DNA from: Saccoglossus kowalevskii
Lineage: Eukaryota; Hemichordata; Enteropneusta; Harrimaniidae
Length of the DNA: 21,232 nucleotides
Direction of reading: 5' to 3'
Assembly: GCF_000003605.2 (NCBI RefSeq)
Contig: NW_003130355.1
Span: 571,126-592,357 of the forward strand
The translations under genes were made by a program, and so were the position numbers. The notes under the pieces were generated by a model. That model saw nothing but the letters and a program-made list of their open reading frames with translations, was not told the origin of the DNA and ran no database searches. Each line of letters begins with the position of its first letter. Position 1 is the first letter of the stretch. Positions 868 through 20,428 of this stretch are shown here, in pieces.

Positions 868-941
868 CATAGTCCTTGTATTCTGCATTTAATGACTGGA
901 CACCTTCTGTTAATGCCTGAGATAGGCCTGGACTACTTGGC
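868..941 (-). CDS. pgm3: PGM3 coding exon 5 ([14 protein letters not shown])
   Basis: This is a 74-bp exon. Its first base completes Arg134, giving [18 protein letters not shown], followed by [10 protein letters not shown] and one base of Gly159. The vertebrate protein has RDTRPSSEKLSQ and later DYGLLTTPQLHY. The acceptor is GTTTTCTAG|G and the donor is TATG|GTGAGT. The next exon should start by completing Gly and reading L-x-T-T-P-Q; nothing like that is present in 1-867, so it lies outside the window. Confidence 0.92.
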
Positions 942-3900
942 CTAGAAAACAAACAAACTGGGTCATAGTACAGAAAAATATTTTTGATTCAAATCTTGAA
1001 ATAAAGCAAATTATGGCCGATGTTGAAAAAAGGGTGCATGAAAAGCAGTTTCCGTTGCAATATTAAATTTTTTTGAATTAGCATGCAACCATTAGAATTT
1101 GCATAAATAGATTGTATATATTTCGCTGTAATATTGAAGAGATTACAAACAAATAGAAAGAAAGAATATGAAAACTATTGGAGAATGTGCAAACCAACAA
1201 ACTTCTTTAATTATTCATAACATCAAGTATGAAAGTGAAGTCTTTGGACAACAAATAAGCAAGGTTCGAAATATTCAGAGGAATTTACTGAATCTTCCAT
1301 TTCAGGAAAAGCTCAAAAAATCTTAAGTAGCTAGCTGAGTTAATTGATTCTGAGATTGAGAAAATTTAATTTTTACTCAAAAAATAATCTCAACCCCTTA
1401 AACACTGATAAAAATACGAGATACGATTACCTGGTGTCTCTTGCAATTATAACGTGAGCAGTTTGCGAAACATCAATCATTTCACATTCAACTATTTTCT
1501 GCAAGGCTCCAACGATGTCCCCGTCTCTGAAATTGAGACCGATATTCGTTAGCATACATGTCTTTTGTGATACTGTCTTATATTTATAACAATCATAAAT
1601 TGAATAAACATAATATAATAAATATACTCAAAATATAATACCAATAACTATAATCAATCAATGATTTGTAAGAGCATGCCAGGATTTGTGATATGGGATA
1701 AAGATTTTACAAGAAGCAAACTCTTGCAATTTTAAAACGCTTGAAACCGATCGCAATTTGTGTGCAAGTCAATCAAAAGCATTCCCAACCAATAGTGTCA
1801 CAGAATACAATGGGTGTTTTGAAATTTCAATTATGTACGTAAATGAGCGAGACTATCGCCGCATTCGAAAACGCAAAATACACTTACATGTGCATGTATT
1901 ACATGATTTGCTAATACCCCCGGTAAGCCCTGCGTGTCCAATCAAAGAAAGCTTAGAAAGAACTCCCATGTGCTGAGAGTATTGGAGACGTATTAAAAAT
2001 TAACAAGCCATGCATGACACAGTTCCCCTGAGAGTTACCAAATTTAGGATATATAGTTTTGTTTATAGTGATATTATTATAGCATTATTCAAAACAAAAT
2101 GGTCACCGGTCGGCCATTTTGAATCAGATTGTCAAACCAATACATCTGTATACATGTATCTATAAAATGAGGTATGAGGAATATATATATTTGAACATAA
2201 TCAGTCAAAGCATGTCAGAGATATCGCACTAGAACCGCATTCATTGAAGCAGCCTCTTGGCTAAGGTAGCTCCACTGATAGCAATGCACCTTTCAATTAA
2301 AGAATTAAAGATATCATCACAAAATGAACAAATCTGAAAGAGGTCCACCTGAGATATCTATATGTATAATAACAAAGCAATCAGACTTGCCATTTTTAAA
2401 AATGACAAAATATTCACTGAAATTAGAAAATAGGAGATATCATCACTAAATGGTCAAATCTGAGTAAGGTCTACCAAAAGTAGTTTTCAAGAAAAAGTTG
2501 AAAAAGTAACTTAATGGTCGAAATAGCTCTGCTGTCTTACAAGAACTTTGTGGTACCCATTTTTGCACCGTAAATTCAGACCGTATGTAAACCGTTTTGT
2601 AATAAAATGTGTGTATTTTTATGAACATGTTTGTTTCTTCATTGCAAAAATGTTGTGGAAATCAATGACAACTTGTTTTGCATTTTTTTTTTTCTTCAAA
2701 AGGTCGTAATATTTTCCTGAGCCCGGCTTAGTGGACGAAATATGTAATTGGGATAGTTTTTCATGGATGGTGAAATAGTTACAATTTTAAACTAAAAAAA
2801 AATCATCTTTTTTAGATGGTCCTTGATTATAAGCGCTCCCCCTATTTTTCACCGATTTTACATGTTCAGCCACCTGGGCTTATGATCGGGGAAGTACGGT
2901 ATAGTAAGATAAATACTGTAAATTACTCATACAACACAAACATTCAAATATGATTTGTAGACGCTCAATCTTGTACAGAGATACAAAGAAAAATGCTGCT
3001 CATTTATTAGATCAACTTTTTCTTGCTTGGCCATACATAGTGATAGTGCCCTCTAGAGTTAGGAAATTGAAATTCTTTCAGTGAAATTTTTCACAAAGAT
3101 TACTGTCTTTTTTATTTCAAAATGTGGGCAGTTTAATCTTAATTCTTAATAAAACTATTTATTACATATTTTCTTGTGATATTAATGGTATACGAACTGT
3201 ATTTGCTCTATCAGAAGTGCATGTGATTATGCAAGTTCAATATGGCAGTATGTTTTGATAATTTCGTAAGTTTGGTCTTCAAAAAACAAAAACAAAAGTG
3301 TTTTGGTCTTGTATTCGCTTCTAATGGAGATGGGCTTCTAATCAGGCAAATAGGATATTAATTTGCAAGCGTGTTCAATCACAAGCTAACTTAGCCTAGC
3401 CTCAAACAGATTTTCTGTTCATTCTGAGATCTCACGCAATGCTTAAAAAGACGCAAATCAAATGTTTGCTACAAAAAACAAGTGATTTGAATTTGGAATT
3501 CACTTTTTTTATGGTTCAATGTTGAAATGATGATCTTTAAAAAAGGGTTGTATTGTGTCATCAAAATTGAGTATTAAGTGTAGAAACACACAAAAAATAG
3601 TTTCTCGCGATTTCTTGACACCACTACGATGCAATAACTTTTGTTTTTCCTGGTTTAACGTTAATTATCCATGCTCGTTAATTGCCTAACACCAGATCTT
3701 GCTGTGAATAGAAAATGGTCTATTGCCATTTTAGCCATTCCTCAGACAATTAAAATGAATCAACTGTGGTGTGCTATATAAGCATGGTTCATCACCATCC
3801 CATATTGTAACACGATATACAGAGGAAACTTATGTAAACGTTCAAGTCTAGGTTTAAAGAATTAGAAATGATGTGTACATTTCATAAAGACATACTTTAA

Positions 3901-6900
3901 CTGATGCCTGCCACTATAAATAATATTACAAGAGACCTAACGTCAAATTGCTTAGCTTCTTCAAAACAAGGCTGATGAAGTTTGTATGGTGAGAAATTTG
4001 CTAATTGCCAGAAAATATTTTCACACAAATATGCATTCAAAATGACTTACTTTTCATTGGCCAATAATGTAGCATGTTTCTCCCATGATGCTACTAACAT
4101 TTCACCCATTGGCTCGATCAATTTGACTCCATTATCGCACTCAGGATTGTGGGAGGCTGTTATCATCACACCAACGGCAGCTACAAGTGAACCAGACAGA
4201 TTGTCATTCAGATATAAATTGAAACAAGACAGTATGTAGTCCCTGTCATTTAATTATAAAATACTCATGTCAAAATAATACATGGAATATCTGCAAACAA
4301 ATGAATTAATATGTACTCTATGTGGGTACAACTCATCATAAAGTAATTTCCCTTAATCCAGTATTGTACTGATAACTGATAACTTCCATTGACCCATGTC
4401 CGAAATCTCAAGAGTGCACAAGTGCAACAATGTGTCATACATGCTCAAGAAACTGCATTCATAAATCTGAGTAAACCTTGATGTACCTTTAATAACAACT
4501 TTACTTCTTTGTTAATGCAGGTTTTTGTATACTACCAGGACCTGGATTTGTTTCAGTATCACTACTATAATTCCAATCAAAATGTAGCTCTGACCCCTCT
4601 CTACAGTTACCACTGAGATTCGTAATGGTATGACCCATTTATCCACCAGCTGACAACTGAAGCTACATGTAGGCCTCATGTGTCAATGTGCCTGGCCAAG
4701 ATTTATAAACAGTAACTGTAAAATGTTTTCACTAATCTTCAACTTTGTGACCCGGTATTTATAATGGAATGCAATTTTTACAGTTTAAAGATTTAATATA
4801 CAACAACATTTTTGACCACTTTTTTTTCAAAATTTCCGCGTTAATTTATCATAAAAACCAAACAAAAACCAGACTGTGGTCTATTTCTGTCACTGATTCA
4901 GATCAAGGTCATGACATCACTAAAAACCCCAGCATTACGATCTAATCTAATTATTTATTCTGAGCATGCTCAGTTGTTCTGTCAGTGTTGTTAGGAGAGG
5001 TAATTTTGAATGAAAATCGTTTTAAAAGACCCACTTAGGATTTTCAGATCTGAAAAAAAAATTAACAGAGACTTGTTTATCAACCTGCCAAGTTTCATAG
5101 ATATCTGCTGCAGAATTTCTTAGAAAATCTTGGAGATGTAAAGGAAAGTGGATGGACGGAAAACAGAAATTAGAAACTACATGTATAGTCCGTCTTCAGG
5201 CTGCGTCTGAACAAGAACGAATTATAAAATATTTGCCCCAGTTGAAGTACAAACTTCAATATAGTCACACGGAACACACGCTGGGCTATTATTGTCAATT
5301 TTTATTACCATGCTGGTCAAATATACAATACTAATTCCCAACTTCCATGAATCTGCGATGGCATTCTGGTTGTATTTGCGACTTTGTTAGTAAGGTCACT
5401 CAGCAAGTTGGTGAGGTCACAGTACAAGTTGGTGAGGTCACGGAGAAAGTGTGTGAGGTCACTGAACAAGTTGGTGAGGTCACTAAGCAAGTTGGAGAGA
5501 TCACTGACCAAGTTGGTGAGGTCACAGAAAAAGTTGGTGAGGTCACAGAGAAAGTTGGTGAGGTCACAGAGCAAGTTGGTGAAGCCACAGTACAAGTTGG
5601 TGAGGTCACAGAGAAAGTGTGTGAGGTCACTGAACAAGTTGGTGAGGTCACAGAGAAAGTGTGTGAGGTCACTGAACAAGTTGGTGAGGTCACTAAACAG
5701 ATTGGTAATGTTACAGGGCAAGTTGGTGAGGTCACTCAGCAAGTTGGAGAGATCACTGAGCAAGTTGGTGAGGTCACAGAAAAGGTTGGTGAGGTCACAG
5801 AGAAAGTTGGTGAGGTCACAGAGCAAGTTGGTGAAGCCACAGTCAAAGTTTGTGAGGTCACTGAGCAAGTTGGTGAGGTCACTGAGCAAATTGGCAAGAT
5901 CACTGAGAAAATTGGTGAGGTCATTGAGCAAGTTGCTGAGGTCACTGAGCATATTGGTGAGGTCACTGAGCATATTGGTGAGGTCACAGAGCAAGTTAGT
6001 TAGGAAAATAAACAACTTGGTGAGGTCATTGAACATAGTTGTGTGCAAATGTAACATACTGTGCCTGGAAAGACACTAAAATAAACTTATATGCATAGAA
6101 ACATGTTTTGTTTATGTTTACATTTTGTCATGAACAAACCTTTAGTAGCTTTGGATCTCAGCACAGCCAATAAACCCATACGATACAATACAGAATCTAA
6201 TGTATCAGCCCTGCAACCAAATCAATGTTGGAATTATCAGGTGACAATCATGAATAGATATATCTTAATCATCCCTGTAATCATATGAAGATGTATTATG
6301 ATTGGAGATTCTGGTCAACAAGTTAAATTCTCTTTTTTCTGGACTGGACTGGTACATGTATGTTCAAATAGCACAAAACGTTCTGTTCAAAAAAATGTGT
6401 TTTCCTATAATTTGTCATTTTGTTTGCTGTGTTTCATCAGAAATTCAACAATTTGGCACTTAAATCAACTACTCCTATTACTATCAATACAACAAACCAT
6501 TGATCATTTAGTTTCAACTTTCTGAGGGCAGTCATACATGCACACATAAAATAATAACAATTTAAAAGCTTTTACACTGTTGTCTAAAATAGCATGATTG
6601 ACATCAGTTTTTGGACATTACAGTGACTATTACAGTTTTGCAACATATTGCAAATTTTGTACTGCATCACGTTTTGTATGGATACCAAGGCAACAAATTT
6701 AACACATATATGTATGAAAGACATTGATTATGTTCACAAACTTGAAAGCTCACTTTCAATTTTTATTTATGGTATGCGTGATTTGTAGGCTCTGTAAAAA
6801 AAAGCCATATTTTACAAGTGTTTACATCGCCATCTACGTCGAGTATATTCTAATGGTAGTTTGGTACCTACATTTATATTGGTCTAAGATTTGCAGGTTA

Positions 6901-7239
6901 TAGCGCCCTCACTTAGTTGGGTTATGGTGTTAGAGGTGTAATTGTTGGAATAAATTTCCTCATTGTTCTTTTTAATATATTCATTCATTACCTAACCCAA
7001 TGAGAACATGGCTGAAATCGCTTGATTCAGGGGGACGGTTAAAACAGCACACCATTTGATTGGAAATTCCTGATTTTAATATCTTCAGCTATGCGATGAT
7101 TCGACAAGTCACTGATCGTTTTATTTGTACCTTACCTTGCTCTGAAACCGGCAGTGCCGTATGTAAATTGTCTGCCATCTGTGCGTGTGTGCTGTGATGC
7201 GCCTCGTAGGGCTGCACTCCACCACTCGTTATTCGCCAT
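868..7239 (-). CDS. pgm3: PGM3 (phosphoacetylglucosamine mutase), 5' part: five coding exons, 3' end outside window
   Basis: This is a gene model; coding segments are 7136-7239, 6140-6210, 4051-4180, 1431-1526 and 868-941. PGM3 converts GlcNAc-6-phosphate to GlcNAc-1-phosphate in the cytosolic hexosamine pathway that makes UDP-GlcNAc. The joined exons total 475 nt with no in-frame stop and encode residues 1-158 plus the first base of Gly159, of about 540 in the family. Landmarks in order: YGTAGFR (27-33), [17 protein letters not shown] (39-55), the phosphoserine loop TASHNPE (66-72, Ser68), DNGVKL (74-79), ARDTRPSS (130-137). All occur in the expected order for PGM3. Intron phases are 2, 1, 2, 2, 1 and each junction restores a sensible codon. 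The later sugar- and phosphate-binding domains must lie beyond position 1. It is divergent from MGAT2. I am very sure of the family; exact splice sites are inferred. Confidence 0.95.
942..1430 (-). other. PGM3 intron 4
   Basis: This is a 489-bp phase-2 intron, donor GTAATC and acceptor TTTTCTAG. It is AT-rich and I see nothing else in it. Confidence 0.85.
1431..1526 (-). CDS. pgm3: PGM3 coding exon 4 (linker and ARDTR)
   Basis: This is a 96-bp exon encoding residues 103-133 with split codons at both ends. It ends HVIIARDT and two bases of Arg134, the equivalent of vertebrate VVIGRDTR. The acceptor is CTCAATTTCAG|A with a branch-point-like CTAAC about 25 bases upstream, and the donor is CCAG|GTAATC. 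The 27 residues between LANE and IIARDTR agree in length with the family but are poorly conserved, as is usual there. Confidence 0.92.
2249..2540 (+). repeat. Dispersed repeat, copy II
   Basis: This is the same family as the 161-820 block but shorter, with about one and a half units. It opens with GCAGCC and AGCTCCACTG (2268) followed by AGCAATGCAC, continues with AAGATATCATCAC and AAATCTGAAAGAGGTCCAC, and closes with AGCTCTGCTGT at 2525-2535. It is in PGM3 intron 3, antisense to the gene. Confidence 0.8.
2812..2905. repeat. MITE-like remnant ending TACGGTA
   Basis: It contains GATTATAAGCGCTCCCCC and CTTATGATCGGGG in a purine/pyrimidine arrangement and ends in TACGGTA (2895-2901). On the other strand this is TACCGTA, then a GATCATAAGC-type motif and TATAATC repeats. 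I associate this layout with short non-autonomous DNA transposons of marine invertebrates. No intact terminal repeat pair is visible. Confidence 0.35.
4051..4180 (-). CDS. pgm3: PGM3 coding exon 3 (catalytic phosphoserine loop TASHNPE)
   Basis: This is a 130-bp exon encoding [14 protein letters not shown], then [26 protein letters not shown] and two bases of Lys102. In the alpha-D-phosphohexomutase superfamily the Ser of TASHNP is phosphorylated and carries the phosphate in catalysis; here it is Ser68. The acceptor is TTCACTTGTAG|CT and the donor is AAAA|GTAAGT. Cys73 stands where vertebrate PGM3 has an acidic residue (ECDNG rather than EEDNG), just after the loop, so it is unlikely to abolish activity. 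Confidence 0.95.
4960..4973. repeat. 14-bp perfect palindrome CTGAGCATGCTCAG
   Basis: This is a perfect inverted repeat with no spacer in PGM3 intron 2. Its core GAGCATGCT also occurs in the 62-bp array near 14800-15070. It could be a dimeric protein site or chance. Confidence 0.5.
5388..6045. repeat. 21-bp minisatellite, about 30 units
   Basis: The unit is approximately GTTGGTGAGGTCACAGAGCAA. The GGTCA core recurs at exact 21-bp steps from 5393 to 6023 (31 slots). Twenty-four slots keep AGGTCA, six have variants such as AGATCA or AGCCAC, and one near 6002 is degenerate. The absence of indels over about 600 bp leaves frames open on both strands: plus-strand heptads V-G-E-V-T-E-Q, minus-strand heptads L-T-N-L-L-S-D. 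A 12-unit (252-bp) higher-order repeat is visible: the run starting GTTGGAGAGATCACTGA at 5491 recurs at 5743. It lies wholly inside PGM3 intron 2, so I treat it as non-coding. Confidence 0.97.
6140..6210 (-). CDS. pgm3: PGM3 coding exon 2 ([17 protein letters not shown])
   Basis: This is a 71-bp exon. With the split codons it reads [25 protein letters not shown], matching the helix that follows YGTAGFR in PGM3 (vertebrate form [16 protein letters not shown]). The acceptor is a clean TTGGTTGCAG. The donor is AAAG|GTTTGT, with GT but weak U1 complementarity. One leading and one trailing base match the phase left by exon 1 and required by exon 3. Confidence 0.92.
6211..7135 (-). other. PGM3 intron 1
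   Basis: This is a 925-bp phase-2 intron, donor GTAAGG and acceptor TTGGTTGCAG. It is AT-rich. I see no other exon, RNA gene or clear repeat in it. Confidence 0.85.
7136..7239 (-). CDS. pgm3: PGM3 coding exon 1 (start codon, YGTAGFR motif)
   Basis: The exon encodes residues 1-34 plus two bases of Arg35. It ends in [10 protein letters not shown], the conserved N-terminal motif of phosphoacetylglucosamine mutases. The ATG has a strong Kozak context (A at -3, G at +4), and an in-frame TGA lies 12 bases upstream of it, so the start is well fixed. The donor is GCAAG|GTAAGG (phase 2); a second possible GT downstream is excluded by an in-frame TAA. A longer open frame covers the same bases in another register, but it gives no family match. 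Confidence 0.93.
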
Positions 7240-7279
7240 AGTTCGTTTTCAGTTTGCCACATTGCCGACACTTGACCAT
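7229..7279 (-). other. Overlapping upstream ORF across the PGM3 start
   Basis: An ATG at 7279 opens a 16-codon frame that ends at 7229, past the PGM3 ATG at 7239. A second out-of-frame ATG at 7262 opens a longer frame that runs through coding exon 1 into the intron. Whether either is transcribed depends on an unknown start site. The PGM3 ATG itself has the strongest context of the three. Confidence 0.45.
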
Positions 7280-7453
7280 TTAAGTCTTTGATAATAAATC
7301 AACCATGAACTCCATCGGCGTTTTGTGAGTGCATTGCAACGATATTACTAAAGTTTACGCAAATAAAAGTGTTGTTTATATTTAATTTTAATAATAAAAC
7401 GACATGTTTGATGTTTTTTATTAATATGTTTACGATACCGAAGAATATATGTA

Positions 7454-7465
7454 TATATAAAAAGG
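7454..7465 (+). promoter_or_regulatory. TATA-like box TATATAAAAAGG
   Basis: This is a good TATA match on the plus strand, about 280 bp before the MGAT2 ATG. Initiation about 30 bp downstream would put several short upstream ORFs into the leader (for example 7567-7599 and 7615-7650), which argues that the main start site may lie further downstream. AT-rich DNA produces such matches by chance. Confidence 0.25.
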
Positions 7466-7536
7466 CAGCCAAAGTATTATCGTTCTCGTGTCAGCTGATC
7501 GAAAGAAAAAAGACACAGCTAAGCGGTATAGAATTA

Positions 7537-7547
7537 GCACATGCGCA
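7537..7547. promoter_or_regulatory. NRF1-like site GCACATGCGCA
   Basis: Read on the minus strand with one flanking base (7536-7547), this matches the NRF1 consensus YGCGCAYGCGCR at 10 of 12 positions. NRF1 sites are common in divergent housekeeping promoters. The two mismatches make this only suggestive. Confidence 0.3.
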
Positions 7548-7647
7548 TTTCATTTTTTCGGTTGATATGGAAGAAAGAAATACGAGGAATACCGTTTAGT
7601 TGTTCACACAAAAAATGACAAGTCTCGTTGAAGCCCTTTCCTCTGGA

Positions 7648-7666
7648 TGACGTAGAAATGACGTGG
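7648..7666 (+). promoter_or_regulatory. Paired TGACG sites, TGACGTAG and TGACGTGG (UPRE/CRE-like)
   Basis: TGACGTAG (7648-7655) and TGACGTGG (7659-7666) are in the same orientation with starts 11 bp apart, about one helical turn. TGACGTGG is an exact match to the unfolded-protein-response element TGACGTG(G/A) bound by XBP1 and ATF6; TGACGTAG is a CRE/ATF-like half site. They lie about 80 bp upstream of the MGAT2 ATG and about 410 bp upstream of the PGM3 ATG. Binding is inferred. Confidence 0.45.
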
Positions 7667-7739
7667 ATTTGACATATGTGGGATCTCGTGGTGTGTGGTG
7701 TTAGGTTAGACTACAAACAACCACAGATAGGTTGGTGAC

Positions 7740-7796
7740 ATGCAATGCGGCCTTTCCGTGTTTTCAAGTTGTTGGTGTTTCTTATGTTACTGGTGA
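7740..7796 (+). other. Overlapping upstream ORF across the MGAT2 start
   Basis: An ATG at 7740 lies 5 bases before the MGAT2 ATG, in a different frame, and reads 18 codons to TGA at 7794-7796, overlapping the main coding region. Both ATGs have G at -3 and C at +4, so neither clearly dominates by context. Any transcript starting upstream of 7740 carries both. Confidence 0.6.
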
Positions 7797-8362
7797 CGTT
7801 TTCGCTATATATCTTAGTGTCCAATGAGGAAGCGAACCACCAATCTCGGAGACCCCAGGGCCATGATGTGTACGACGTAGCTGTAGTTGATCCTCCTGCG
7901 CCGCATCCAATACGAAACGTGGTTAGAAGTCGTGAAAACGAGCCCATTCACTTCGCTCAAGGAAAACCGCTGTCAAGTTCAAGGACTGTTGATCCCCGCG
8001 GTCAAAATGATACGAAGAATATTTCTTCTCCCAACAACACATTCAATAAAGTCCGAGATGGAAATGAAATTTTTGAGAAATCATCTCAACCTAAAATCAA
8101 CTTCAAAAGCATTGATGACATGAAGGCTGCAATGTTAGAGACAAATCACCGGCAACACATACGAAATTTGGACAAGTTTCCAACACGACCTTCTGACGGT
8201 GTCGTGATTGTCGTACAGGCTCACCAAAGACACGAATATCTTCAGTACTTAGTGAACTCGATGAGAACAGTGCCTGAAATTAACGAAGTGTTGCTGGTAA
8301 TTAGTCTTGACTGGTACAGTGACGAAATGAATGCTATAGTGGACAATATTGATTTCTGTCAG
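7745..8362 (+). CDS. mgat2: MGAT2 (alpha-1,6-mannosyl-glycoprotein 2-beta-N-acetylglucosaminyltransferase), first coding exon
   Basis: MGAT2 is a Golgi type II membrane enzyme that transfers GlcNAc from UDP-GlcNAc in beta-1,2 linkage to the alpha-1,6 mannose arm, a step needed for complex N-glycans. The exon encodes 206 residues of a protein that is about 450 long in vertebrates. It has a short basic cytosolic tail (1-8), one hydrophobic anchor (about 9-25), a low-complexity stem with three N-glycosylation sequons (Asn88, Asn92, Asn97), and the start of the catalytic domain: IRNLDK (139-144), VVQAHQRHEYLQYLVNSM (156-173), INEVLLVIS (179-187), NIDFCQ (201-206). This aligns with vertebrate LRNVDK and VVQVHNRPEYLRLLLDSL. 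The start follows an in-frame TGA at 7736. The donor is CAG|GTAAGC, phase 0. The catalytic EDHYL-type region must be in later exons, which I do not find. It is divergent from PGM3. Confidence 0.94.
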
Positions 8363-8479
8363 GTAAGCCAATTTTGAAATACATTTTTGACTTGAAAATA
8401 AATGTTATAATGCAGTTTTGATGGAGAAAAGATCATCCTGTCTACATCTTTTGGTGTGAAATTTTAAAACGCAAACATG

Positions 8480-8535
8480 TTTTTATTTATTTGTTAGTTT
8501 GTTTGTCTATTTATTTATTTCTTTATTTACTTACT
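8480..8535. repeat. TTTA/TTTG-rich simple repeat
   Basis: This is an imperfect run of TTTATTTATTTG and related tetranucleotides just inside MGAT2 intron 1. Confidence 0.8.
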
Positions 8536-8963
8536 CTTGCTTATGATAAACATTTTTCTGTAATGTTGTAAAATGGGTCTTGTTGATGGATATTATTTTA
8601 GTTTGTGATTGTCTTTTGGGATTTTGGTCAGATTTTCAGCACAAACAATTTCCAATCAGTATTTTAGGGTGTTTAGTTTGAAAGGATGAAATTTTGTGAA
8701 ACTTTTTTTACTCACAAAATTACATGATTTCTCTTGAATTAAGAAATTTGATAAAATTGTCTTTCGCCAAATTGAAGACATTTTCATAGATTCTTGAGCC
8801 AAAAGTTGACAGCGAAGTTATGAAAGTAGTTTTAATTGGTTTACCGTAATCTTTACTGATATGACCATTCATTAAATTGAAATTTATTAGTACTTTGCAT
8901 TGTTGATCTGTGCAACAGTGTGTCTGTGTTGCAGTGTGTTCTTTCTACTTTCACATTTAGCGT

Positions 8964-9137
8964 AAAATCTGTATTAGAAGCCGCATCCCTAATAGAAGTC
9001 ACATCCATTCTTTTTGAATAATTTAGAACCAAATATTCACCATTTCTCATATGTGTAGATGCTCTAATAGAAGCCGCATTTCCTCTATTGCATTGTACCA
9101 TTTTAATAGAAGCCGTGGTTTCTAATACAGATTTTAC
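8964..9137. mobile_element. MITE-like element with 18-bp perfect terminal inverted repeats
   Basis: GTAAAATCTGTATTAGAA at 8964-8981 is the exact reverse complement of 9120-9137. Inside are subterminal direct repeats TAATAGAAGCCGCAT and variants near 8975, 8992, 9065 and 9104. TACCGTAATC near 8843 and the outer bases TACTGTAAAATC (read inward from about 9143) suggest the original element may have been longer. No transposase is present and I cannot define a target-site duplication. Confidence 0.65.
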
Positions 9138-9403
9138 AGTACACATGACCTTAAACATAAAAACTATAACAAGTCTAATCCAACTAATGAGAATTTCCAT
9201 CGTTTCGATATAGCATACGTATCGATGAATACCACTTTTTATATTAGAAATGGATTTATTATACTGGATCATTAAATTTTTTATTATTTTGACCATAAAC
9301 AGACATGTTCTTGTCCTCAGTAAAAATCACAATACCCTTGTGGCAACAAGTGGCGAATTACTGCTACATAACTTTCCGTCATTCCAGATTTGATCTGCTT
9401 AAT

Positions 9404-9406
<3 letters not shown>

Positions 9407-9436
<30 letters not shown>
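9407..9436. repeat. AT dinucleotide microsatellite
   Basis: This is about 15 AT units followed by a short ACACAC tail. Confidence 0.97.
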
Positions 9437-9444
<8 letters not shown>

Positions 9445-9649
9445 CTAATAGAGCAGTTTTAAATATTCATATTTGCTTGTAACTATTAACTATGAAAAGA
9501 TGTATGGCACAGTTTTCTGTTCTCATTGAATTTAAAATACCTTTGAGTTATTTTTGAGCAATAGGAAATCTACTTTACTTTAATTTAAAATTAAAATTTA
9601 CTTTAATTAAAATTCATTGTCATTCAGTGTTTTCCCAACACGTGTGCCA

Positions 9650-10130
9650 GAGATACATCAATGCTGCCTGTAAATCATTCGTTTCCTCCACTCTGGTGAG
9701 GGACTATGGTGTTTAGAGTAGGAATAGTGAACTACTACTGAACTATGAAATTTACGATGCTGTGACCCACTGCAAACTGAACCGCTACCATCGTGATCCG
9801 TTTGAGGCATGCATCCAGTATAATTGAAGCTATTCTAAATCTGTATTCAATGCAACATACAATGATGCTGTTGTAGTTGCTGGTAGTGATTTGTAGCATT
9901 CACAACTGAGGCTTCAATTGCCTCCATGCCCTGGAGTATTCCTAAACTCTTCAAACACATTTTGCTATAAAAATGGGAGCCATCTCAACTTCGAAGTTCA
10001 AGCCCTCTGCCACATTCAACTGTGCGTATGTTTTCTGCAGAATTTCCTCCAGTAAATGAGTTTGTAATTTTTTAACAACTGATGACGATGAGAGTTGACA
10101 TGCTTTACAAAAATTGTTGCTTTCAATACA
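9650..10130 (-). pseudogene. Possible decayed coding patch, unrecognised
   Basis: This patch is richer in GC than its surroundings. On the minus strand one frame is open over about 55 codons (about 9965-10130) and contains LLEEILQKTYAQLNVAEGL and FEVEMAPIFIAKC. After a frame change it continues with LGILQGMEAIEASVVNATN, and further interrupted frames follow. There is no ATG-led gene, no clear splice sites and no family I recognise. It may be a fossil transposon or simply non-coding DNA. Confidence 0.2.
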
Positions 10131-10219
10131 TCATTATCATCATAATCTTCATCAGCCATGTAAATCACTATATGACAATTGTCCTCTGCATGTATGCTGA
10201 ATGCATGCATGTGATTCAT

Positions 10220-11850
10220 ACTTGTACATGTGGATTAGCAGACACGGAGAGAGATTACAATATTAACAAAGAGTTTTAGCTTTACATGTATAGTTCATCA
10301 GATGTGCTTGTGAAAGAGAAAATATGGTGCATGTAGACATTATTATGCAATAGATTAGATTACTGTCTTCAATGACATTTATAATTGGTATTCAACCTCT
10401 CAGTGTGGAGTCTACTCTTGTATGCTCCATACAGTATTTCTACAAACTGGCTTTCTTTTATTTCTGTTATTATAAGATGTGCTGAAAAGAATCTGAGAAA
10501 AAAAAAATTTTAGAATTGTTTAGGCACGCTTTTTTTTCATTCTATTCCACTCAATACTTAGAACATACAAAGACGTTCACAGAGGGATGACTATTGAACT
10601 GAGCAGTTTTTCAGACACAGTGAAACTAATTGTTATGCGCTAAACATTGTACTAATGTTTACCTCTCTATGTATGTGTACTGGAGCTAGGAATTCTATCC
10701 TATACTACGTACAGTTGATTAAAAGAAATTCAACCTAATGAGGTGTGGCAAATCTATTCTGGACATCATATTGCAAATGTTATATTGCAGATATTTTGGG
10801 TGTATAAAATTTGAACATAACCATAGGCTGTAAAGAGTCTGGTGTAAATTTCACTAAGTTAGTCAAATACTAGTACCAGTACACGTCATTTCCTCTTATT
10901 TTCAAATCATATAATGAAGTCATATAGAAATAATTGCTACGTTCACACGACAGCATTTTATTGGAGCCCTAATCTTTATCATAATTATTCTGTGTGGTTG
11001 TTCCTGTTATACGATTTTGTGATAAAATTACACAAATATATAATTTACTATATTCACTGTGTAACTAGCATTACATGTAAAATATTAAACAGCAGTATCC
11101 AGTCAACATTCATGAAGTTTCAAATTATTTTATTATTACTCTGCACAAAAACTGATTACCAATATTCCCAGCCATTAAGACTTTCCACTATACCTAGCCC
11201 ATATGCAAATCTAATTTAATACATCGAATAACAGTTTAATTAGACTTTAATTAAATGTAACTTTTGTATTTTGACTCTCTCCAGCAGGTCAGGTAGTATC
11301 AGAGCAGCACTTTAGTATAATTGAGTATGGATATGTGTGTACCTAGGACTTTCAATAAATTTGTATATTGTACCTAACGTGATATTTTACATTATGCCTT
11401 TACGCTTTGAATGCCAGTCACTTTTCACAAAATAAAAATATTTTTTTCCAATTTTTTTTTTTTTACCAATTTTAAGCAAATCCTTTAACAAAAAAAAGGA
11501 ATTAAAAAAAAAACAATTTATGGAAAGTACATAATAATTAGTCAATTTGTAGTTCCACCAAAGAATTTTCCGATACCATGTAACATAAAACATCTGTCAA
11601 TAGACCTAATTTTTCAGAAAAAAAATATGTTTTTAAACTGATTAACTCTGTTAATATGCCAGTAAAATACATATTCAATTAATCTAAATTACAATTGTCC
11701 TTTCAATGCGTTCACTTCACAAAATTCATAAATTTGTACTTGTTTCTTTTCTTGCCTTTTTACACGAATAATGAAATTTTCAATCCTTAAAATGTATTTG
11801 TTTCGTATTAATCTGGAAATTAATTGAAACACTGAAGTTAACTTATTATT
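10220..11850. other. Intronic stretch with no gene seen
   Basis: This is AT-rich intronic sequence with homopolymer A and T runs near 10500, 11440-11465 and 11490-11515. I see no coding segment, RNA gene or clear repeat. Confidence 0.6.
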
Positions 11851-14655
11851 TGCCAGCTTTTTTCACAATTTTGAAGCCATCAAGAAATTGTGTTTATTAC
11901 AGAAGGAATTTTTCATTATTACAAAATTACTACCTGACTCATAATATTAAACATTATTTGTCTTTTGCGAACTACTGCATTTACAGTCTAGTAGGATTTA
12001 GATTTCAATGGAATACAAGAAGACAATTAAGCAGTGCACACAGACATATCAATTATCCTGCCATGACCACAAGACATGGGCCTTTCAAACTGAAACATAA
12101 CAAACATTCTTCAGTCCATTATGCCTGTATATTGGAGAATCACACTGAGCACATACAGCACAGTTTATATTGTCCATGGTGTTTATTTGAGAAGCTTCTA
12201 TATTGATATCTGATCCTATGTGACCCCCATGGCGATCAGCATCTCCATAGTGGATGATTGCAAACACAATTGTGTGTGCTTTTTAAAAGCTGCTTTGAAA
12301 ACTCTCTAAATCCACCTTATGATTGCTCTGAATGAACTTCAACTGATTGGTGTTGCATCTAGCTTAGTGCTGATGTCATTAAAATCTGACTAAAAGATAC
12401 AGTCAAGTACTAGTAATGAGTCTAGTACAAATCTTTTCAGAACAATCTTCATTATGTCAAAGTGCTATGATTTGAAAGCTTTCTTTCTAAATGGGTTAGG
12501 TACTGAAATCGTCAGTGTTATCTACTTGGTGTTGAAATGTGCCGGTATGTAAAGTGTACACAAAAAGATGTCTACATCTACATGTACATGTTCAGTATGT
12601 GTGTGCAAAGATTCCAACTGCCATCCCTTCTATTTCATATGGTAAACCGTTAATCTGTTCCAAACTTTTCACCACCAGTTCCCTCTTTTCATCACAAATT
12701 GTCCCATTTATAGTCTGCACATTCCCTCAGAAGATTGGGACAAAAATGGCCAAATTATTTGGGTAAAAATGGAAAATTATGTCTGTTGGCCTCAAAATTA
12801 AGGTTCATTTCTAGAAATATTGAAAAAATATAAGAAAAAAGTGCAGAAAAATTTGGACAAGAAAATCTGGTGGTTAAAAGGTTAAGACAACATTTGACAT
12901 TTTATTTTTCTATCATGGTGTACATTTCTGTCGCATACATATTTGTTCAATTTGGATCTCACTTGATACATGGATTATGCTATTAATGTATGGCTTCGGA
13001 TAACATTTGTTTCATTGCCAGTAATTATAACACTAGACTCGCCCTGCTGTGGCAGCAGATTTTGATTCCTTTACGTACTTTGTGATTGTGCTCATCACAG
13101 TACATGTATTTCCACACATGCATGTACATATACATCATATGTTGCATGGGACTCATGCATGGGACTCATGTTGTGTTGTGACTGGCGTTTTAGTACCTAA
13201 TTAACAATGCATCAGAGCATTTTTTTTATGGAACTGATGTGAACATTTAGAACTACATATGTTTCTCTATTCTAAATGATAGTGAATTTGATACACCAGA
13301 AAATACTAGAATGTGCATGTGACCTTTTAGGGTTATGCATAGGACCTATTTTGATCTTGTGTAATTATGTTGCTGTTGAACTGGGTTATCAATGTCAACG
13401 TGTCTGTCAGCAGTCATTTATCAAGATTTCAATATTTAAAAAATGTTTGGACCAAAAATATGGGTTTCATCTTCTTACATATTTAATCACATACATGTAC
13501 TGCAGTATATTCATACATGTAGTTATACTGGTACATGTAAGATGGCTGAATAATAGTAATGTTGACAGCAAAGCTATTTTCACTTGTGATGCAATGATGC
13601 AATGTATCCATGCAGTATTTCAATTCGCTTTGCTTGTGACATTACGGCCACTGGATACACCACATCGCTTAAAAAAAATAATTCCCATACCCAACGAACA
13701 TCAGCTATCACATTCTGCCATAGTGCGGGACGTGTAAAACGCAAAGTTTGTTTAAACAAAATTTGAACACCACAGAGCATCATTTTTCTCTTTGAAAAGA
13801 GATGTCACCAGCTGCGGAAACAGATTTCTATCATCGCTAAACTGTACCATGATGGTTTTTTTTGTTGTCATACATTTTTGATAACCGGATAAAGCATTTT
13901 TTAGTGCGCCTGATTTGTTGATTCCTATGCTTCCAGATACACATTTTACCAGGATTCTGATGCATTGTATATTGACTTTTAATATTAAGAAATTTATTGA
14001 TTGTGGAACTCTAATGTCATGTTACACTGTAAAATAAGAATGGCCATTACTTACTGTACTACAATAGTTGAATGGAATAATGTACAAATGTATGCACTAA
14101 ACTGTAATTATTTTTATGTGACCTAAAAACGATGCAATGAAACCAGTCCCATCATATAAATTATTTGGTAATTAAAGACTTTAAGTTACTGTCATTTACA
14201 TTATATGGAGCACTGTGAACTGAAAAGCAATTAAACTCATCCTAAATTCCACAATACTAAATGCACTTAATCTAGATTAGCTCTCTGTATACCATTCTTA
14301 CTTTGCGTGGATTTGTACACTTTGTGACTGTTTTTGCTGTACTAGTAATGCATGTGATTTCCAAAATAACATAATAATGTGTCTCTGGTCAAAATAAGTT
14401 ATATATTAATGGTTCTGGTTTATGAGCTCTTCTAATAAAGAAAAGACATTATTTTTTTTTCAGATTATGATTCAGGTATGGCCTAAAACTGAAGATTACG
14501 GTGTCTAATCACCAAAATAAGTTTAAGGTCATTGTTTAGGGTCATTTCACCTTATTTTAGGATTTCAGAATTATGTTGGATAAAATTTCTCAGAACTATA
14601 CAAAACCTGATGTTGCCACCTCTTACACAGATCTTACAAAGTAGAATTGCAACTT
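11851..14655. other. Intronic stretch with only doubtful open frames
   Basis: It contains a 118-codon plus-strand frame at 11850-12206 overlapped by a 60-codon minus-strand frame (12085-12267), and a 153-codon plus-strand frame at 13276-13737. None resembles a known family, and the last runs through several TACATGTA repeats. A 13-bp direct duplication CATGGGACTCATG lies near 13145-13170. Nothing else is recognised. Confidence 0.5.
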
Positions 14656-14657
14656 CA

Positions 14658-15105
14658 AGGAGTTGAATTCAAATTTTACACTACTGAGCATGTTACTGCA
14701 CAAATATGCAATGCATTATGGGAGAGAACATCAAATTTTACACACTTGAGCATGTTACCGCACGTACATGTAGTGCATTATGGGAGAGAACTACAAATTT
14801 TACACTACTGAGCATGCTACTGCACATATATGCAATGCATTATGGGAGAGAACTTCAAATTTTACACAACTGAGCATGTTACCGCACATACATGTAGTGC
14901 ATTATGGGAGAGAACTACAAATTTTACACTACTGAGCATGCTACTGCACATATATGCAATGCATTATGGGAGAGAACTTCAAATTTTACACAACTGAGCA
15001 TGTTACCGCACATACATGTAGTGCATTATGGGAGAGAACTACAAATTTTACACAACTGAGCATGCTACTGCACATATATGCAATGCATTATGGGAGAGAA
15101 ATTCC
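14658..15105. repeat. 62-bp tandem array with alternating unit types (124-bp dimer)
   Basis: GCATTATGGGAGAGAA recurs at 14713, 14775, 14837, 14899, 14961, 15023 and 15085, exactly 62 bp apart. Two types alternate: one with TATGCAAT before the core (14713, 14837, 14961, 15085) and one with TACATGTAGT (14775, 14899, 15023). The strict alternation shows that the array grew as a 124-bp dimer. The rest of the unit is AAATTTTACAC then TGAGCATG and RCTGCACA/ACCGCACA. Confidence 0.97.
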
Positions 15106-17149
15106 ATTGTGTATAATGGGAATTTATTACCATTACCGTACAATCGCTCACTATTAAATGTAAATGTTTTGAAATCTTAAAACTTTATTAGGATCCATTT
15201 CAATAATATTTTTATTATTTCCATCTCATGTCACCAAAGAAAATATTGAGATACATGTATGAAGAAATAATGTCATCATATCCATCAAGTGCCAAGCTTT
15301 TCTATGACATTTTGGACTCTTGTTTCTCGAAAAATAGTCCAGTGACCTCAATTTTGTTTTTTAATTTCAGTATCCTAATGGCATGAACCCATAATAATGA
15401 AAACATGAAGATAACAATTAATCTTCAATTCAGCGTGAATCTCCTCAAAGTAGTGACATCAAGAGATCTAAATTTACTTTTTTGCTCTGCTGTCGACTTA
15501 GTTGAATAAGCTGTTCTTAATACTGATAGTCAGATGCATGGGTTTCATACTCACTATTAACCATTATACATTTGTTACAATATCAATTCTATAATTTTCC
15601 AATTTTGAAGAATATTTTTGGTAAAAATTGTTAATCAACTTCAGTACTCTGGATATGATGGCTTCCATGTAGTGAATCTAAAAATTGCAGATTGATGTGT
15701 CTCTATCAGATTTGTGTCAAATTTTGGCACCATTTGAAAAATGAAAGTGCATAATTTATCCAATATTTTTTTTTTTTAAATTATGAACAAGTTATTATAT
15801 GGGATATTATGCTCATTTGGTCCAAAATTAACAAAAGAATTTTAAAAAAATACACTATAATTTACAAAATGTTGTATCATCAATTTTTTTTGGGGGGGTG
15901 TTTGCAAAGGATTATTACGCTTTTCGTAAATCTCTATCTCGTACATCAAATTCATGCCTTTAGTTCACAAGACTTATTTCTTACACATTGCGAATTGTAC
16001 ATCACTAACTGCAGAGCTATATCAGCTAACTGGCTGCTTGTTTTTATTTAAATTATACATGTATATTTTGTGAGCAAACACTACGGCAATCTGGATATTG
16101 TCATCTCTCAGTAGACTTTAACACCTTTAAAACTGTCATGATTTAATTGATATTATAATAAATGGTCTTTGGAAGGCAGCACAGACCGTGTCAAAAGCTA
16201 GTCTGTTGCACAACCCACAGCTGTCAATACATCACATTTGTAATTGACATCAGCCAGAAGATAATACCATATTTGGTCTATTAGTAGCACATGCTTTACC
16301 AAAAAAACTGAGGTATTATTATGTTTAAAATAAGTAATGATTAGTTTACTAATGTAATTTTAGGTTTATACACCAGATCTTGCCTTTTAATAGAAACGAT
16401 CACTTCCAATCAATTGGCCAAGCAAATTATTCCTCTGAGGCTAAAAACATCCCTCTCAATATTGCCATGGTGATGTATTCTGGAATTCTTCACTGTTGAA
16501 AGATTCAGTGATTTTCCCCAACTTGCACAATTCATGGTAAATATGTCTCCTGTGAAATTAAAGCTGATTATAGCATTTCATTATATGTAATATGTGGTGG
16601 GACTTAATGCATGAATGAATAGATAAATTGTTATCTTAGGCCATAAAGAAGGTTTTTGCATCTCATCATTACACGTCATCGCAGGTTTTAGTTGGAAACC
16701 TGGGCCTCACACATTTTTTGTTTGCGTCTGAGGATATACTAAGGAAGAATTTCTTGTTGATATATTTCAGACATACATGTATCAATAAAAGACATTTATG
16801 AATGATCTTTAATAGAAAACAGATGCCATTACTGACACCATTCTCTTTAAGTATCCTTTGATTTGAACATTTGAGTGCCGAAATCAAATTATGAAGCTAT
16901 TCACAAATTAAACCACCTATTTTTTTCTCACCTCAATTTTGATGAAGATCTGTAGGCAAAAAAAATTATAATGTTCATTTGGTTCAAAATTCTTGAAAAA
17001 AAGTTTAAAAAAAATTGTGGTATTTAGGATAAATAAATTACTGTACTTGACATGTAGTTCACTTGTCAAACTTCACAACTTCAAAATTCACTGAAATTTC
17101 TCTGTGATTGTAACATACAGTTATAGGGTATTCATACAGGTAATACAGT
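15106..17149. other. Intronic stretch with no gene seen
   Basis: This is AT-rich, with a T8G7 run at about 15884-15898. The open frames here are short and lack any protein resemblance. I see no other structure. Confidence 0.6.
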
Positions 17150-17662
17150 TTTTTGCATACAATGTTTTTTCTTCAGTGAATATTATTGTCATTTTTGTTG
17201 GCAAAAATGGCATTATTGACTTTTTAAAACTACCAGCCAAACTACTTTAATAGTAACTGGTAATTAAACCATTGTATGTAGGTACCTTGCGTGGACCTGT
17301 ATCAAATTTGTTCATTTAAAGATGGTATTTTAAATTCTTTATTTTTAACAGATATTTTTACATTCACTGTCAACTTTGTCAAACAGAGCCAATCATATTA
17401 CTGATTTTATATTAGCATCCATTGGTGTCAGCATAAACTTTTCACTGTTTTGACTTCTTCTTGAAAACTGCAAGTCTGATTGTTTATTTCAGGATATCTT
17501 CAATTCTCTAATTCTGATGATTATTTTGTCATTTTTGGTAAAAAGTGATATTTTCGACTTTTTTTCCGAAAACTGCTTTGATATTATTTAAATGTATATA
17601 TATATTAGGTACCTCCAGTGAGCCTCTCACAGATTTGTTCATTTTGTGATGATACATGGGCA
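17150..17662 (-). repeat. Dispersed repeat, copy III: about three diverged units
   Basis: On the minus strand this reads ATCATCACAAAATGAACAAA, GGTACCT, GAAAATATCACTTTTTACC, AAAATGACAAAATAATCA and GAATTAGAGAATTGAAGATA, the same order as the left-hand copies. Older units continue to about 17150. It is in MGAT2 intron 1, antisense to the gene. Confidence 0.8.
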
Positions 17663-19972
17663 TTGTATCTTCGAATCTGTCGAAGTTTTCCTATGATAAA
17701 AATAGATGAAAAACTGTACATTGTACATGATTGACAAAACCTGTCACACTTTTATAACACGCCAACAAAGGACAAGGTAACCAGAGATTTATAACATTCA
17801 TTATACATGTGTGTACAAAATGTATAACCACTAATAAATTATTGATAAAAATAATATAAACACTCATAAAGTAAATATTAAGTAATGTATTCTCTGTCTA
17901 TTTAATTTAACCACGTTTGAATCAAAGTTTTATCTCTTTGTACCTACAGTTGTAGCATATCTAACATATATATCGTATATGCCATCTCTGTTCTCTGATA
18001 ATAATGGGATTTTATTAATCAATTGCAAACGTGACTCATCATCCAGATGAACAATGCCAGTTACCGTAATAGGTGAATCTCATCACTGAGCCGCACACGT
18101 ATAAATTTGTATGTCGTTATTTAATGTTACCCAGGTTGGCTGATTAAACATAACTCTTACTGTAAGAGGATCAATTGTGCGGTACAAATTTTTGTATTTA
18201 TCAATGGGTTATTTAGTTACAGGCAATACTATAAGAGCATCAGAAATTAATAGTCTATTAAAAGTGTTATGGGATCAAATAAAGTTGTCATTTGTTGTTA
18301 AAATAATACAAGTTTCCATATTGAAATAGAACAATTTTTGACATTGTCCCAAGTAAGATTGACTGCTCTCACATAGACATTGCTGTGTTTGGTCAAGTAC
18401 ATGTATGTGCACTCCTGTGACTGATGTTAACCTTTTAATACAATAAATGTAAATGGGGGAAGGAGTGTATACAGATAATGAATTTAATTTTTGGCTCGAA
18501 AACATCATTTTCTTGTTTATAGTCAGTTTCAGTTTTTTATTGACTCTCAAGTGAGTGCCATGGGGGAGTTACGATCGTTTACATGTACTGAATGACTAAA
18601 TCTTCAGCAATCATGTGATTTGATGCCAATAATTATTCCATACAATGAATTCCAAGTTGGCACTCACCGTACATGTATCGTGATGTTATCAAAGACTTAT
18701 CAGTAACGGCAATCGTGAAATAGTCCCTGTGTACAGTGTACTCTTTGAGTGACAGTAATGGAAATCAAAAAGCTGTCTGCGTGTGCAATGTACCCTGGAA
18801 AGTATTATTATACTGTGATTGAATACATCATATGAATTTCTTAGTGCTCGTTCGGACACTATCTGAAAACGAGGACTTATTGAAACAATGATTGACCTCT
18901 GTGCATTACATTCAAATGTCATATATACAAAATGTGCATCATATATAATATTATACATATACACATCAATTTGTTTCACAATCTGATTCAAGATGGGCAA
19001 TAGAGCAAATACAGTATGGTACTCCTATTCATTTGGATTTTTAATAGTAAAATTGTTCTTAATAGTACTTGCTGAATATTTTGTGTTAGGTATCGAAGTT
19101 ACTATCTAACCATATGTTGGGAAAAAGCTAGTGGTCATTCCAACGATTCTGGATTTTTTATATACATATATCTCACTGTTTTCTGTATGTAGCAAATGAC
19201 TGACTTACCTACAAATGTACAAGTAGTACCTGCGTTAACTCGGGAGAATATTAATCTTGTGATATTGTGTTACAGTAGTATTTATGAGTTTGCTTTGTAA
19301 AAAAAGACCAAAAAACAAATGAGACTGTATGGAAGTCTAAGTTTGCTTCCAAAAAAAATGTTTGCAGAAGGGCAGTACAGTGAGAGTATTGACTGATACA
19401 AATGTGTACTGTGTCTGAGTGCATACTTACTACTAACCTATCAAAAAATAATATAAGACAGATTTTGATGATTTTTGCTGTATATATTCACAACCATTTT
19501 CAATCAAGAAAATACATTTTATGAACTTTCCCCATCCTGAATATAAGATAATAACAAAATGTGACTATTATGATTAGAATGCATCAAATGTAATTATAGT
19601 TTTAAAATATTGACAAAATATTTCTCATATTGCAGTTACTTTCATGTACATTGTAAGCTGATACATGTACATGTATGAATCACCGTAGAATGTTTGTTTC
19701 TATATTGATTTACATTAAACTGGCAAATAAAACACGTTATGTGACATGGTTTACATATGTCACTCTTGAAATGAATGAATGGTATTAAAATTATCAGAAA
19801 TGTTATTTAAAGTACAAGTGTATTAATTTACCAAAAAAAATTGCTAAACAACAGCCACTTTTCAAGAAAATAACCACCATTATCATAACTGCCATAGATA
19901 AAGCCCAGGTCAGTGAAAACATAGAATCACATTCCCAATCAATCTATAGCACACAGCAATTCATTTACCGGT
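17663..19972. other. Intronic stretch with no gene seen
   Basis: This is AT-rich DNA with scattered TACATGTA palindromes (near 18400, 18577, 18669, 19646 and 19664). The minus-strand frames at 18275-18550 and 18689-19000 have no family resemblance and no supporting splice or start context. Confidence 0.6.
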
Positions 19973-20428
19973 ACTGTCAGTCTTTATTGGCAGGTTTTCT
20001 TCAGTTATTTCTTGCTGTTGTCATAGCTCTACTTCAATATTATACATACATGTACAATGTACATGTATAGGTACTACATGTGGACCTCTCTCAGATTTGT
20101 TCATTTTGTGATGATATCTTTAATTCTCTAATTATTATACATATAGGTTCTACATGTGGACAATTCGTGTACTGCCAGTCTTTATTGGCAGGTTTTCTTC
20201 AGTTATTTCTTGCTGTTGTCATACCTCTACTTCAATATTATACATACATGTACATGTATAGGTACTACATGTGGACCTCTCTCAGATTTGTTCATTTTGT
20301 GATGATATCTTTAATTCTCTAATTATTATACATATAGGTTCTACATGTGGACAATTCGTGTACTGCCAGTCTTTATTGGCAGGTTTTCTTCAGTTATTTC
20401 CTGCTGTTGTCATAGCTCTACTTCAATA
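19973..20428. repeat. 191/198-bp tandem duplication carrying copy IV of the dispersed family
   Basis: About 2.3 copies start at 19973, 20171 and 20362 (ACTGYCAGTCTTTATTGGC). Spacings are 198 and 191; the 7-bp difference is an AATGTAC-type slip inside the TACATGTA cluster near 20050. The copies are nearly identical, so the duplication is recent. Each complete unit contains a minus-strand piece of the 157-bp family (TACATGTGGACCTCTCTCAG then ATTTGTTCATTTTGTGATGA). Confidence 0.92.

What the first reader, a model, noticed from the sequence alone, without database searches (positions are those of the whole stretch)
868..8362. Head-to-head PGM3 and MGAT2: UDP-GlcNAc precursor synthesis and its Golgi user on one promoter region
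The start codons are 505 bp apart and divergent. PGM3 makes GlcNAc-1-P for UDP-GlcNAc; MGAT2 spends UDP-GlcNAc to branch N-glycans. In human the two genes are on different chromosomes. A shared regulatory region could co-tune donor supply and N-glycan branching. The gene calls are seen in sequence; co-regulation is inference.
Basis: partly seen in the sequence, partly recalled or inferred. Interest (0 to 1): 0.75.

Follow-up and report, generated by a model that had tools for sequence, protein, structure and literature searches.

The report
Head-to-head PGM3 and MGAT2 genes
In this animal genome a gene that helps make the sugar donor UDP-GlcNAc and a gene that uses it to branch protein sugars start back to back from one small, probably shared promoter region; the layout is real but of a very common kind, and nothing yet shows that the pairing itself has a purpose.

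Summary
PGM3 (minus) has five in-frame GT-AG exons at 7239-868; MGAT2 (plus) has exon 1 at 7745-8362. The start codons are separated by 505 bp of gap-free sequence. MGAT2 continues along the scaffold as an 8-exon, 484-aa gene matching solved GnT-II at E=5e-115. Visible PGM3 is single copy, but its larger remaining part is unseen; a 27.8-kb N run abuts the window. The spacer lies in the main CpG-rich block of the window (7001-8400, mean CpG o/e 1.18 against 0.44 elsewhere), so one shared promoter region is likely. A UPRE-like site (TGACGTGG, 7659) is a hint, since XBP1s binds the human PGM3 promoter, but 22 motifs were scanned, the GFPT promoter here lacks this site, and a non-ER Hsc70 carries the CCACGT core. 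Divergent pairs are common (25% of neighbouring amphioxus genes), so some producer-user pairs are expected by chance. Conservation and expression could not be tested: no other animal genome is held. Verdict: a real, ordinary bidirectional gene pair; functional co-tuning is unproven.

The parts
7136..7239 (-). PGM3 exon 1 ([34 protein letters not shown]..), start codon at 7239
   Evidence: splice site and frame; AGM1 match from residue 13-16 on; upstream in-frame stop
6140..6210 (-). PGM3 exon 2
4051..4180 (-). PGM3 exon 3, carries the ITASHNP loop
1431..1526 (-). PGM3 exon 4
868..941 (-). PGM3 exon 5 (last one visible; the gene continues towards the N run left of the window)
   Evidence: for the N run
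7240..7744 (.). 505-bp spacer, probable bidirectional promoter; CpG o/e 1.32 against 0.50 for the whole window
7001..8400 (.). CpG-rich (probably unmethylated) block around the spacer; limits chosen by eye after an earlier profile
   Evidence: 500-bp windows: 19 inside, mean o/e 1.18, minimum 0.96; 378 outside, mean 0.44, 4 of 378 at 1 or more; 18 of 415 windows straddling an edge were in neither count. 200-bp windows dip to 0.78 at 7601-7800
7745..8362 (+). MGAT2 exon 1 (206 aa: tail, signal anchor and stem by eye, start of catalytic domain)
   Evidence: donor
8363..21232 (+). MGAT2 intron 1 (first 12.9 kb of 42.1 kb as scaffolded); exons 2-8 follow beyond the window
7454..7463 (+). TATA-like sequence TATATAAAAA (MGAT2 strand only)
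   Evidence: 0.25 such matches expected per 505 bp, so weak
7648..7666 (+). tandem CRE/UPRE-like sites TGACGTAG-N3-TGACGTGG, starts 11 bp apart
   Evidence: TGACGTGG expected 0.015 (whole region) to 0.034 (CpG-rich sequence) per 505 bp; 22 motifs scanned, and this one had been seen by eye beforehand
7540..7547 (+). NRF1 half-site-like CATGCGCA
   Evidence: expected 0.033 per 505 bp

Best explanation
This is an ordinary bidirectional promoter. PGM3 and MGAT2, two probably broadly expressed glycosylation genes, start from opposite edges of one short, CpG-rich, probably unmethylated region; two back-to-back core promoters there fire outward and share open chromatin. Shown here: gene identity, orientation, distance, gap-free sequence, and a CpG-rich block between CpG-depleted gene bodies. 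Inferred: that the block is unmethylated, that both genes start in it, and that they share activators. The match in pathway (UDP-GlcNAc maker beside UDP-GlcNAc user) is most likely coincidence among the many divergent pairs of such a genome, possibly with mild passive co-expression. (The rivals overlap with this and with each other, so the odds need not sum to 1.)
For: Exons and 505-bp spacing. Gap-free window. Full MGAT2 protein. Single-copy visible PGM3: 5 of 5 matches are the window's own exons (the search scores only its best candidates). CpG o/e 0.48 in the PGM3 body, 1.32 in the spacer, 1.05 in MGAT2 exon 1, 0.41 in MGAT2 intron 1, with TpG+CpA excess in both bodies (1.37, 1.42), the usual trace of body methylation (the reading is established knowledge). 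[quoted passage not shown]
Against: No transcription start was mapped; a 5'-UTR intron could put either start elsewhere. With 200-bp windows CpG o/e dips to 0.78 at 7601-7800. CpG-rich windows are not rare in the wider region (182 of 658 over 1.0; 9 of the 182 within C2221:571126-639227), and a second spot lies at 1351-2000 inside PGM3. PGM3 cannot be shown to be complete.
Confidence: 0.68

Rival explanations
1. Functional co-regulation: the shared promoter carries an XBP1/ATF6-type (UPRE) element that raises PGM3 (UDP-GlcNAc supply) and MGAT2 (N-glycan branching) together when secretory load rises.
For: TGACGTGG at 7659 with TGACGTAG about one helical turn before it; the spaced TGACGT pair occurs once in the 221-kb region. 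In human cells XBP1s binds the promoters of GFPT1, GNPNAT1, PGM3 and UAP1 (PMC10164557, passages; UPRE given there as GACGTG). The probable GFPT promoter of this genome has GCCACGT 76 bp before its start codon.
Against: 22 motifs were scanned, so one match at an expectation of 0.015-0.034 is not surprising. No ERSE or GC box in the spacer, while the passages of PMC10164557 stress GC boxes and TATA-less promoters for these genes. The GFPT promoter has no GACGTG within 500 bp of its start; the one TGACGTGG in that 20-kb stretch lies about 12 kb away. The cytosolic Hsc70 gene (named by eye) also has CCACGT about 97 bp before its start, and CCACGT is expected about 0.09-0.15 times per 500 bp. BiP, the natural positive control, was not identified: stretches were fetched from 3 of the 5 scaffolds with HSP70 matches. 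UAP1 gave 0 matches. 'MGAT' occurs 0 times in the main text of PMC10164557.
Confidence: 0.15
2. Ancient animal gene pair: PGM3 and MGAT2 were head to head in an early bilaterian, and vertebrates lost the pair, for example when MGAT2 became a single-exon retrocopy elsewhere.
For: MGAT2 here has 8 coding exons over 60.4 kb, human MGAT2 one coding exon (recalled). [quoted passage not shown] RPL36AL, the human neighbour of MGAT2 (recalled), is a retrocopy that arose within mammals (PMC4219774, passages), so part of the human neighbourhood is recent.
Against: No second animal genome could be searched. Drosophila and C. elegans do not have the pair (recalled, not tested). The neighbour identified downstream (ZRANB1) does not match the human neighbourhoods as I recall them.
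Confidence: 0.15
3. Two independent promoters that happen to lie close, each with its own start site and no shared control.
For: TATA-like sequence only on the MGAT2 strand. The paired TGACGT sites lie 79-97 bp from the MGAT2 ATG but more than 400 bp from the PGM3 ATG. With 200-bp windows CpG o/e dips to 0.78 at 7601-7800.
Against: At 500-bp resolution one CpG-rich block covers both 5' ends (minimum 0.96).
Confidence: 0.2
4. Assembly artefact joining two unrelated loci.
For: The scaffold holds many N runs (9 in the 221 kb inspected).
Against: No N run lies between the two start codons, and the gene models on either side of the junction are clean.
Confidence: 0.02

Closest known systems
Bidirectional (divergently paired) promoters of animal genes
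   Same: Two protein genes on opposite strands with 5' ends under 1 kb apart; common, housekeeping genes enriched (PMC6292497, passages; PMC3815023, passages)
   Different: Nothing in kind; only the identity of the two genes
Human PGM3-RWDD2A and RPL36AL-MGAT2 head-to-head pairs (recalled)
   Same: In human each of the two genes also sits head to head with a neighbour. In mouse cells lacking Mgat2 (27.9-fold down) Rpl36al is 15.6-fold down too (PMC4940165, passages), which fits their adjacency (my inference)
   Different: Other partners; Rpl36al is a retrocopy that arose within mammals (PMC4219774, passages); human MGAT2 coding region is intronless (recalled), here 8 exons
XBP1s control of the hexosamine pathway
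   Same: PGM3 promoter is bound by XBP1s in human cells (PMC10164557, passages); a UPRE-like site is present here
   Different: No evidence that MGAT2 belongs to that programme; no stress test in this animal
PDI-RhoGDI conserved microsynteny (PMC5722932, search listing only)
   Same: Neighbouring genes reported to be functionally linked
   Different: That pairing is reported as conserved; conservation here is untested

Membership tests
Phosphoacetylglucosamine mutase (PGM3/AGM1) | N-terminal AGM1-type sequence with TASHNP phosphoserine loop | tested here: met
   2dka E=7e-36, alignment through ITASHNP; phosphoglucosamine mutases E=7.5e-06 and weaker. The role of the loop is recalled
Phosphoacetylglucosamine mutase (PGM3/AGM1) | Domains II, III and IV | tested here: inconclusive
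   0 matches in the genome for domains II and III, with 0 of 14 controls ringing; domain IV sought only by motif (none in 167 kb); 27.8-kb N run abuts the window
MGAT2 (GnT-II) | Full-length GnT-II catalytic domain with EED metal site | tested here: met
   484 aa, residues 128-480 align to 5vcm at E=5e-115, EEDH aligned to EEDH; metal role recalled
MGAT2 (GnT-II) | Type II Golgi membrane protein (short tail, signal anchor, stem) | tested here: inconclusive
   sequence (MRPFRVFKLLVFLMLLVTFSLYILVSNEE..) reads so by eye; no topology program was run
Bidirectional promoter | Divergent genes with 5' ends less than 1 kb apart | tested here: met
   505 bp between start codons; transcription starts not mapped
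Bidirectional promoter | CpG-rich, unmethylated shared region | tested here: inconclusive
   CpG-rich by o/e; methylation itself not measured
Bidirectional promoter | Transcription starts of both genes mapped inside the spacer | not testable with these tools
   no expression data
XBP1s-regulated hexosamine pathway gene | UPRE or ERSE in the promoter | tested here: inconclusive
   UPRE-like TGACGTGG present, ERSE absent; weak controls
XBP1s-regulated hexosamine pathway gene | Induction by ER stress | not testable with these tools
   no expression data

The most novel reading that the evidence does not exclude
PGM3-MGAT2 is an ancient, selectively kept bilaterian gene pair whose shared promoter, through a UPRE/CRE-type element, matches UDP-GlcNAc supply to N-glycan branching, and which vertebrates lost when MGAT2 became a single-exon gene elsewhere.
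Probability: 0.07. Interest if true: 0.55.

Novelty: new member of a known kind. Interest (0 to 1): 0.2.

Why it matters
If the pair is conserved and co-expressed, it would be a simple genetic device that ties the donor sugar level to a branching step that consumes it, and a natural test case for nutrient control of N-glycans outside vertebrates. If not, it is one of many divergent pairs and a reminder that a meaningful-looking neighbour is expected somewhere in most genomes.

Tried and rejected
Looked for relatives of both proteins in viral contigs: 0 confirmed loci each (in one search three stretches matched a pattern but none was confirmed). No animal genome other than the window's own is held, so conservation could not be tested. 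Tested whether the human PGM3 neighbourhood is kept: the only Dopey_N match is on C4035, a 14.1-kb scaffold, so linkage is neither shown nor excluded. Looked for the rest of PGM3 by Pfam domains (controls rang in 0 of 14, so sensitivity is unknown) and by short motifs: nothing. Rfam: 0 families in the window. Tried to build a regulon control. GFPT: 6 exon-sized matches, none over the family's cut-off, 5 on C2442 and 1 on C1500; the C1500 one was not examined; probable start found on C2442. UAP1: 0 matches. HSP70 family: 26 matches on 5 scaffolds; four stretches from 3 of these 5 were fetched. By eye C1346 is cytosolic Hsc70, C3049 mitochondrial, C449 unassigned; BiP was not identified, and C1729 and C3372 were not looked at. 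The Hsc70 (2.5-kb) and C3049 (1.6-kb) stretches hold TGACGTGG in 0 of 2, but Hsc70 has CCACGT. Rejected the idea that the 222-252 aa open frames around 5317-6079 are a gene: they are a 21-bp minisatellite, open because 21 is a multiple of 3; its RNA fold is somewhat better than 20 shuffles (z -2.77), as expected of a repeat, and was not pursued. Literature: 0 papers with PGM3 + MGAT2 + 'bidirectional promoter' and 0 with PGM3 + MGAT2 + 'synten' in the open PMC library; a looser search (any 3 of 6 terms) held 381 papers, 10 listed, none of the 10 with PGM3 or MGAT2. The species was not identified; one literature search on assembly size found 0 papers. The chance estimate (0.016% to 0.1% for PGM3 alone) uses 40 to 80 related genes in 20,000, which is my assumption.

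Full report
What was claimed.

What is there. The window is scaffold C2221:571126-592357 of a 572-Mb genome in 4,830 contigs, an animal's by gene content and introns. It is bounded on both sides by N runs, of 27,797 and 5,436 bp. PGM3 lies on the minus strand: exons 7239-7136, 6210-6140, 4180-4051, 1526-1431 and 941-868, clean splice sites, one open frame of 158 aa. The best solved matches are phosphoacetylglucosamine mutases, 2dka at 7e-36 and 4bju at 2.3e-35, with phosphoglucosamine mutases at 7.5e-06 or weaker; Pfam gives PGM_PMM_I at 1.2e-13. Searching the genome with these 158 aa returned 5 matches, 5 of 5 being these exons. MGAT2 lies on the plus strand: exon 1 at 7745-8362, Pfam MGAT2 at 8e-22. 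The family found 6 matches in the genome, 6 of 6 on C2221, one of them this exon. Reading the scaffold gave eight exons from 578870 to a stop at 639227 (60.4 kb, intron 1 of 42.1 kb as scaffolded) and a 484-aa protein. It aligns to solved GnT-II (5vcm) over residues 128-480 at E=5e-115. Three N runs lie between exon 1 and exon 3, so the linkage of the later exons rests on scaffolding. The nearest upstream in-frame stop is 4 codons before the PGM3 start and 3 before the MGAT2 start. One limit: PGM3 domains II and III were not found anywhere (the control genomes rang in 0 of 14, so this is no test of absence), and a few motifs were not found in the 167 kb readable around the window. The rest of the gene probably lies in the N run left of the window.

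Is it a promoter? In 500-bp windows inside 7001-8400 (limits chosen by eye after an earlier profile) the mean CpG o/e is 1.18 (19 windows, minimum 0.96), against 0.44 outside (378 windows; 4 of 378 reach 1, at 1351-2000 in PGM3); 18 of the 415 windows straddle an edge and were left out. By part: PGM3 body 0.48, spacer 1.32, MGAT2 exon 1 1.05, MGAT2 intron 1 0.41; TpG+CpA is in excess in both bodies (1.37, 1.42). In invertebrates with mosaic methylation (established knowledge) this is the pattern of two methylated, broadly transcribed gene bodies with an unmethylated start region between. Against over-reading: 200-bp windows dip to 0.78 at 7601-7800, and in the wider 221 kb 182 of 658 windows exceed 1.0, though only 9 of the 182 lie within C2221:571126-639227. 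A CpG-rich window alone is not special; its isolation between two depleted gene bodies is.

Motifs. I saw TGACGTGG by eye, then scanned 22 motifs, several of them variants of it. It lies at 7659, with TGACGTAG at 7648, 11 bp apart. TGACGTGG is expected 0.015 times per 505 bp from the region or 0.034 from its CpG-rich part; the spaced TGACGT pair occurs once in the region. XBP1s binds the human PGM3 promoter and those of GFPT1, GNPNAT1 and UAP1 (PMC10164557, passages), so the lead is reasonable. Controls are poor or against it. The probable GFPT promoter has GCCACGT at -76 but no GACGTG within 500 bp. Cytosolic Hsc70 (by eye) also has CCACGT about 97 bp before its start. BiP was not identified in the 3 of 5 HSP70 scaffolds sampled, and UAP1 gave 0 matches. 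The spacer has no ERSE and no GC box, whereas the paper stresses GC boxes and no TATA for the human genes. I treat this as a hint only.

How surprising is the pair? [quoted passage not shown] With 40-80 UDP-GlcNAc-related genes among 20,000 (my assumption), PGM3 itself would have such a partner by chance in 0.016% to 0.1% of cases. But a reader looking for any meaningful pair among a thousand or more divergent pairs should find some, so the pairing alone is not evidence of function. That the human genes lie on different chromosomes (recalled) adds little: human MGAT2 has one coding exon (recalled) where this one has eight, and RPL36AL, its human neighbour (recalled), is a retrocopy that arose within mammals (PMC4219774, passages).

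Surroundings. Downstream of MGAT2, ZRANB1 lies on the opposite strand (OTU part at 650.5-651.2 kb matching 3zrh at E=3e-39; RanBP zinc fingers and AnkUBD at 662.6-663.7 kb), so the two genes point towards each other. Left of the N run are an ankyrin-repeat frame, a DUF4062 frame and a STAND-NTPase frame just under its cut-off. None of this reproduces the human neighbourhood of either gene as I recall it; only 7 selected frames were scanned, so other neighbours may have been missed.

Verdict. A correct and careful observation of a real head-to-head gene pair, most likely one bidirectional promoter of the usual kind. Whether the pair is conserved or co-tuned is open and could not be tested here, since the session holds no other animal genome and no expression data.

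Noticed in passing
5386-6041: In PGM3 intron 2, about 31 copies of a 21-bp minisatellite (GTTGGTGAGGTCACTGAGCAA). It is open in several frames on both strands (222-252 aa) and carries 24 copies of AGGTCA, a nuclear-receptor half-site (recalled), on one strand, against 9 in either orientation in the rest of the window.
   Followed up: partly
258-676, 2295-2474, 17275-17654, 19971-20428: A dispersed repeat (84-nt arms 90% complementary between 307-390 or 464-547 and 20061-20144 or 20252-20335) lies in inverted orientation in the PGM3 part and in MGAT2 intron 1, locally amplified in tandem units of 157 and 191 bp.
   Followed up: no
14668-15104: A 62/124-bp tandem repeat (7 or 3.5 copies, 86 or 97% matches) in MGAT2 intron 1.
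   Followed up: no
scaffold C2221:650538-668399 (L022, L024): ZRANB1 (minus strand) points towards MGAT2; to its right on the plus strand an open frame reads by eye like a two-pore potassium channel (0 Pfam families).
   Followed up: partly
L045 (G000:C4830, probably the mitochondrial genome): C4830 holds COX1 (E=8.1e-142). In a neighbouring frame that I read by eye as ND1, AAA sits at positions that are usually lysine and AGA at two positions read as serine, which by recall argues against a vertebrate, tunicate or echinoderm. Species not named.
   Followed up: partly
scaffold C2442:236471 (L039): Probable GFPT start: a 7-base coding first exon ATGTGTG with a GTAAGT donor, the only candidate in the 20 kb searched, and exon 2 starting G|GA ATA TTT GCA TAT about 2 kb downstream.
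   Followed up: partly
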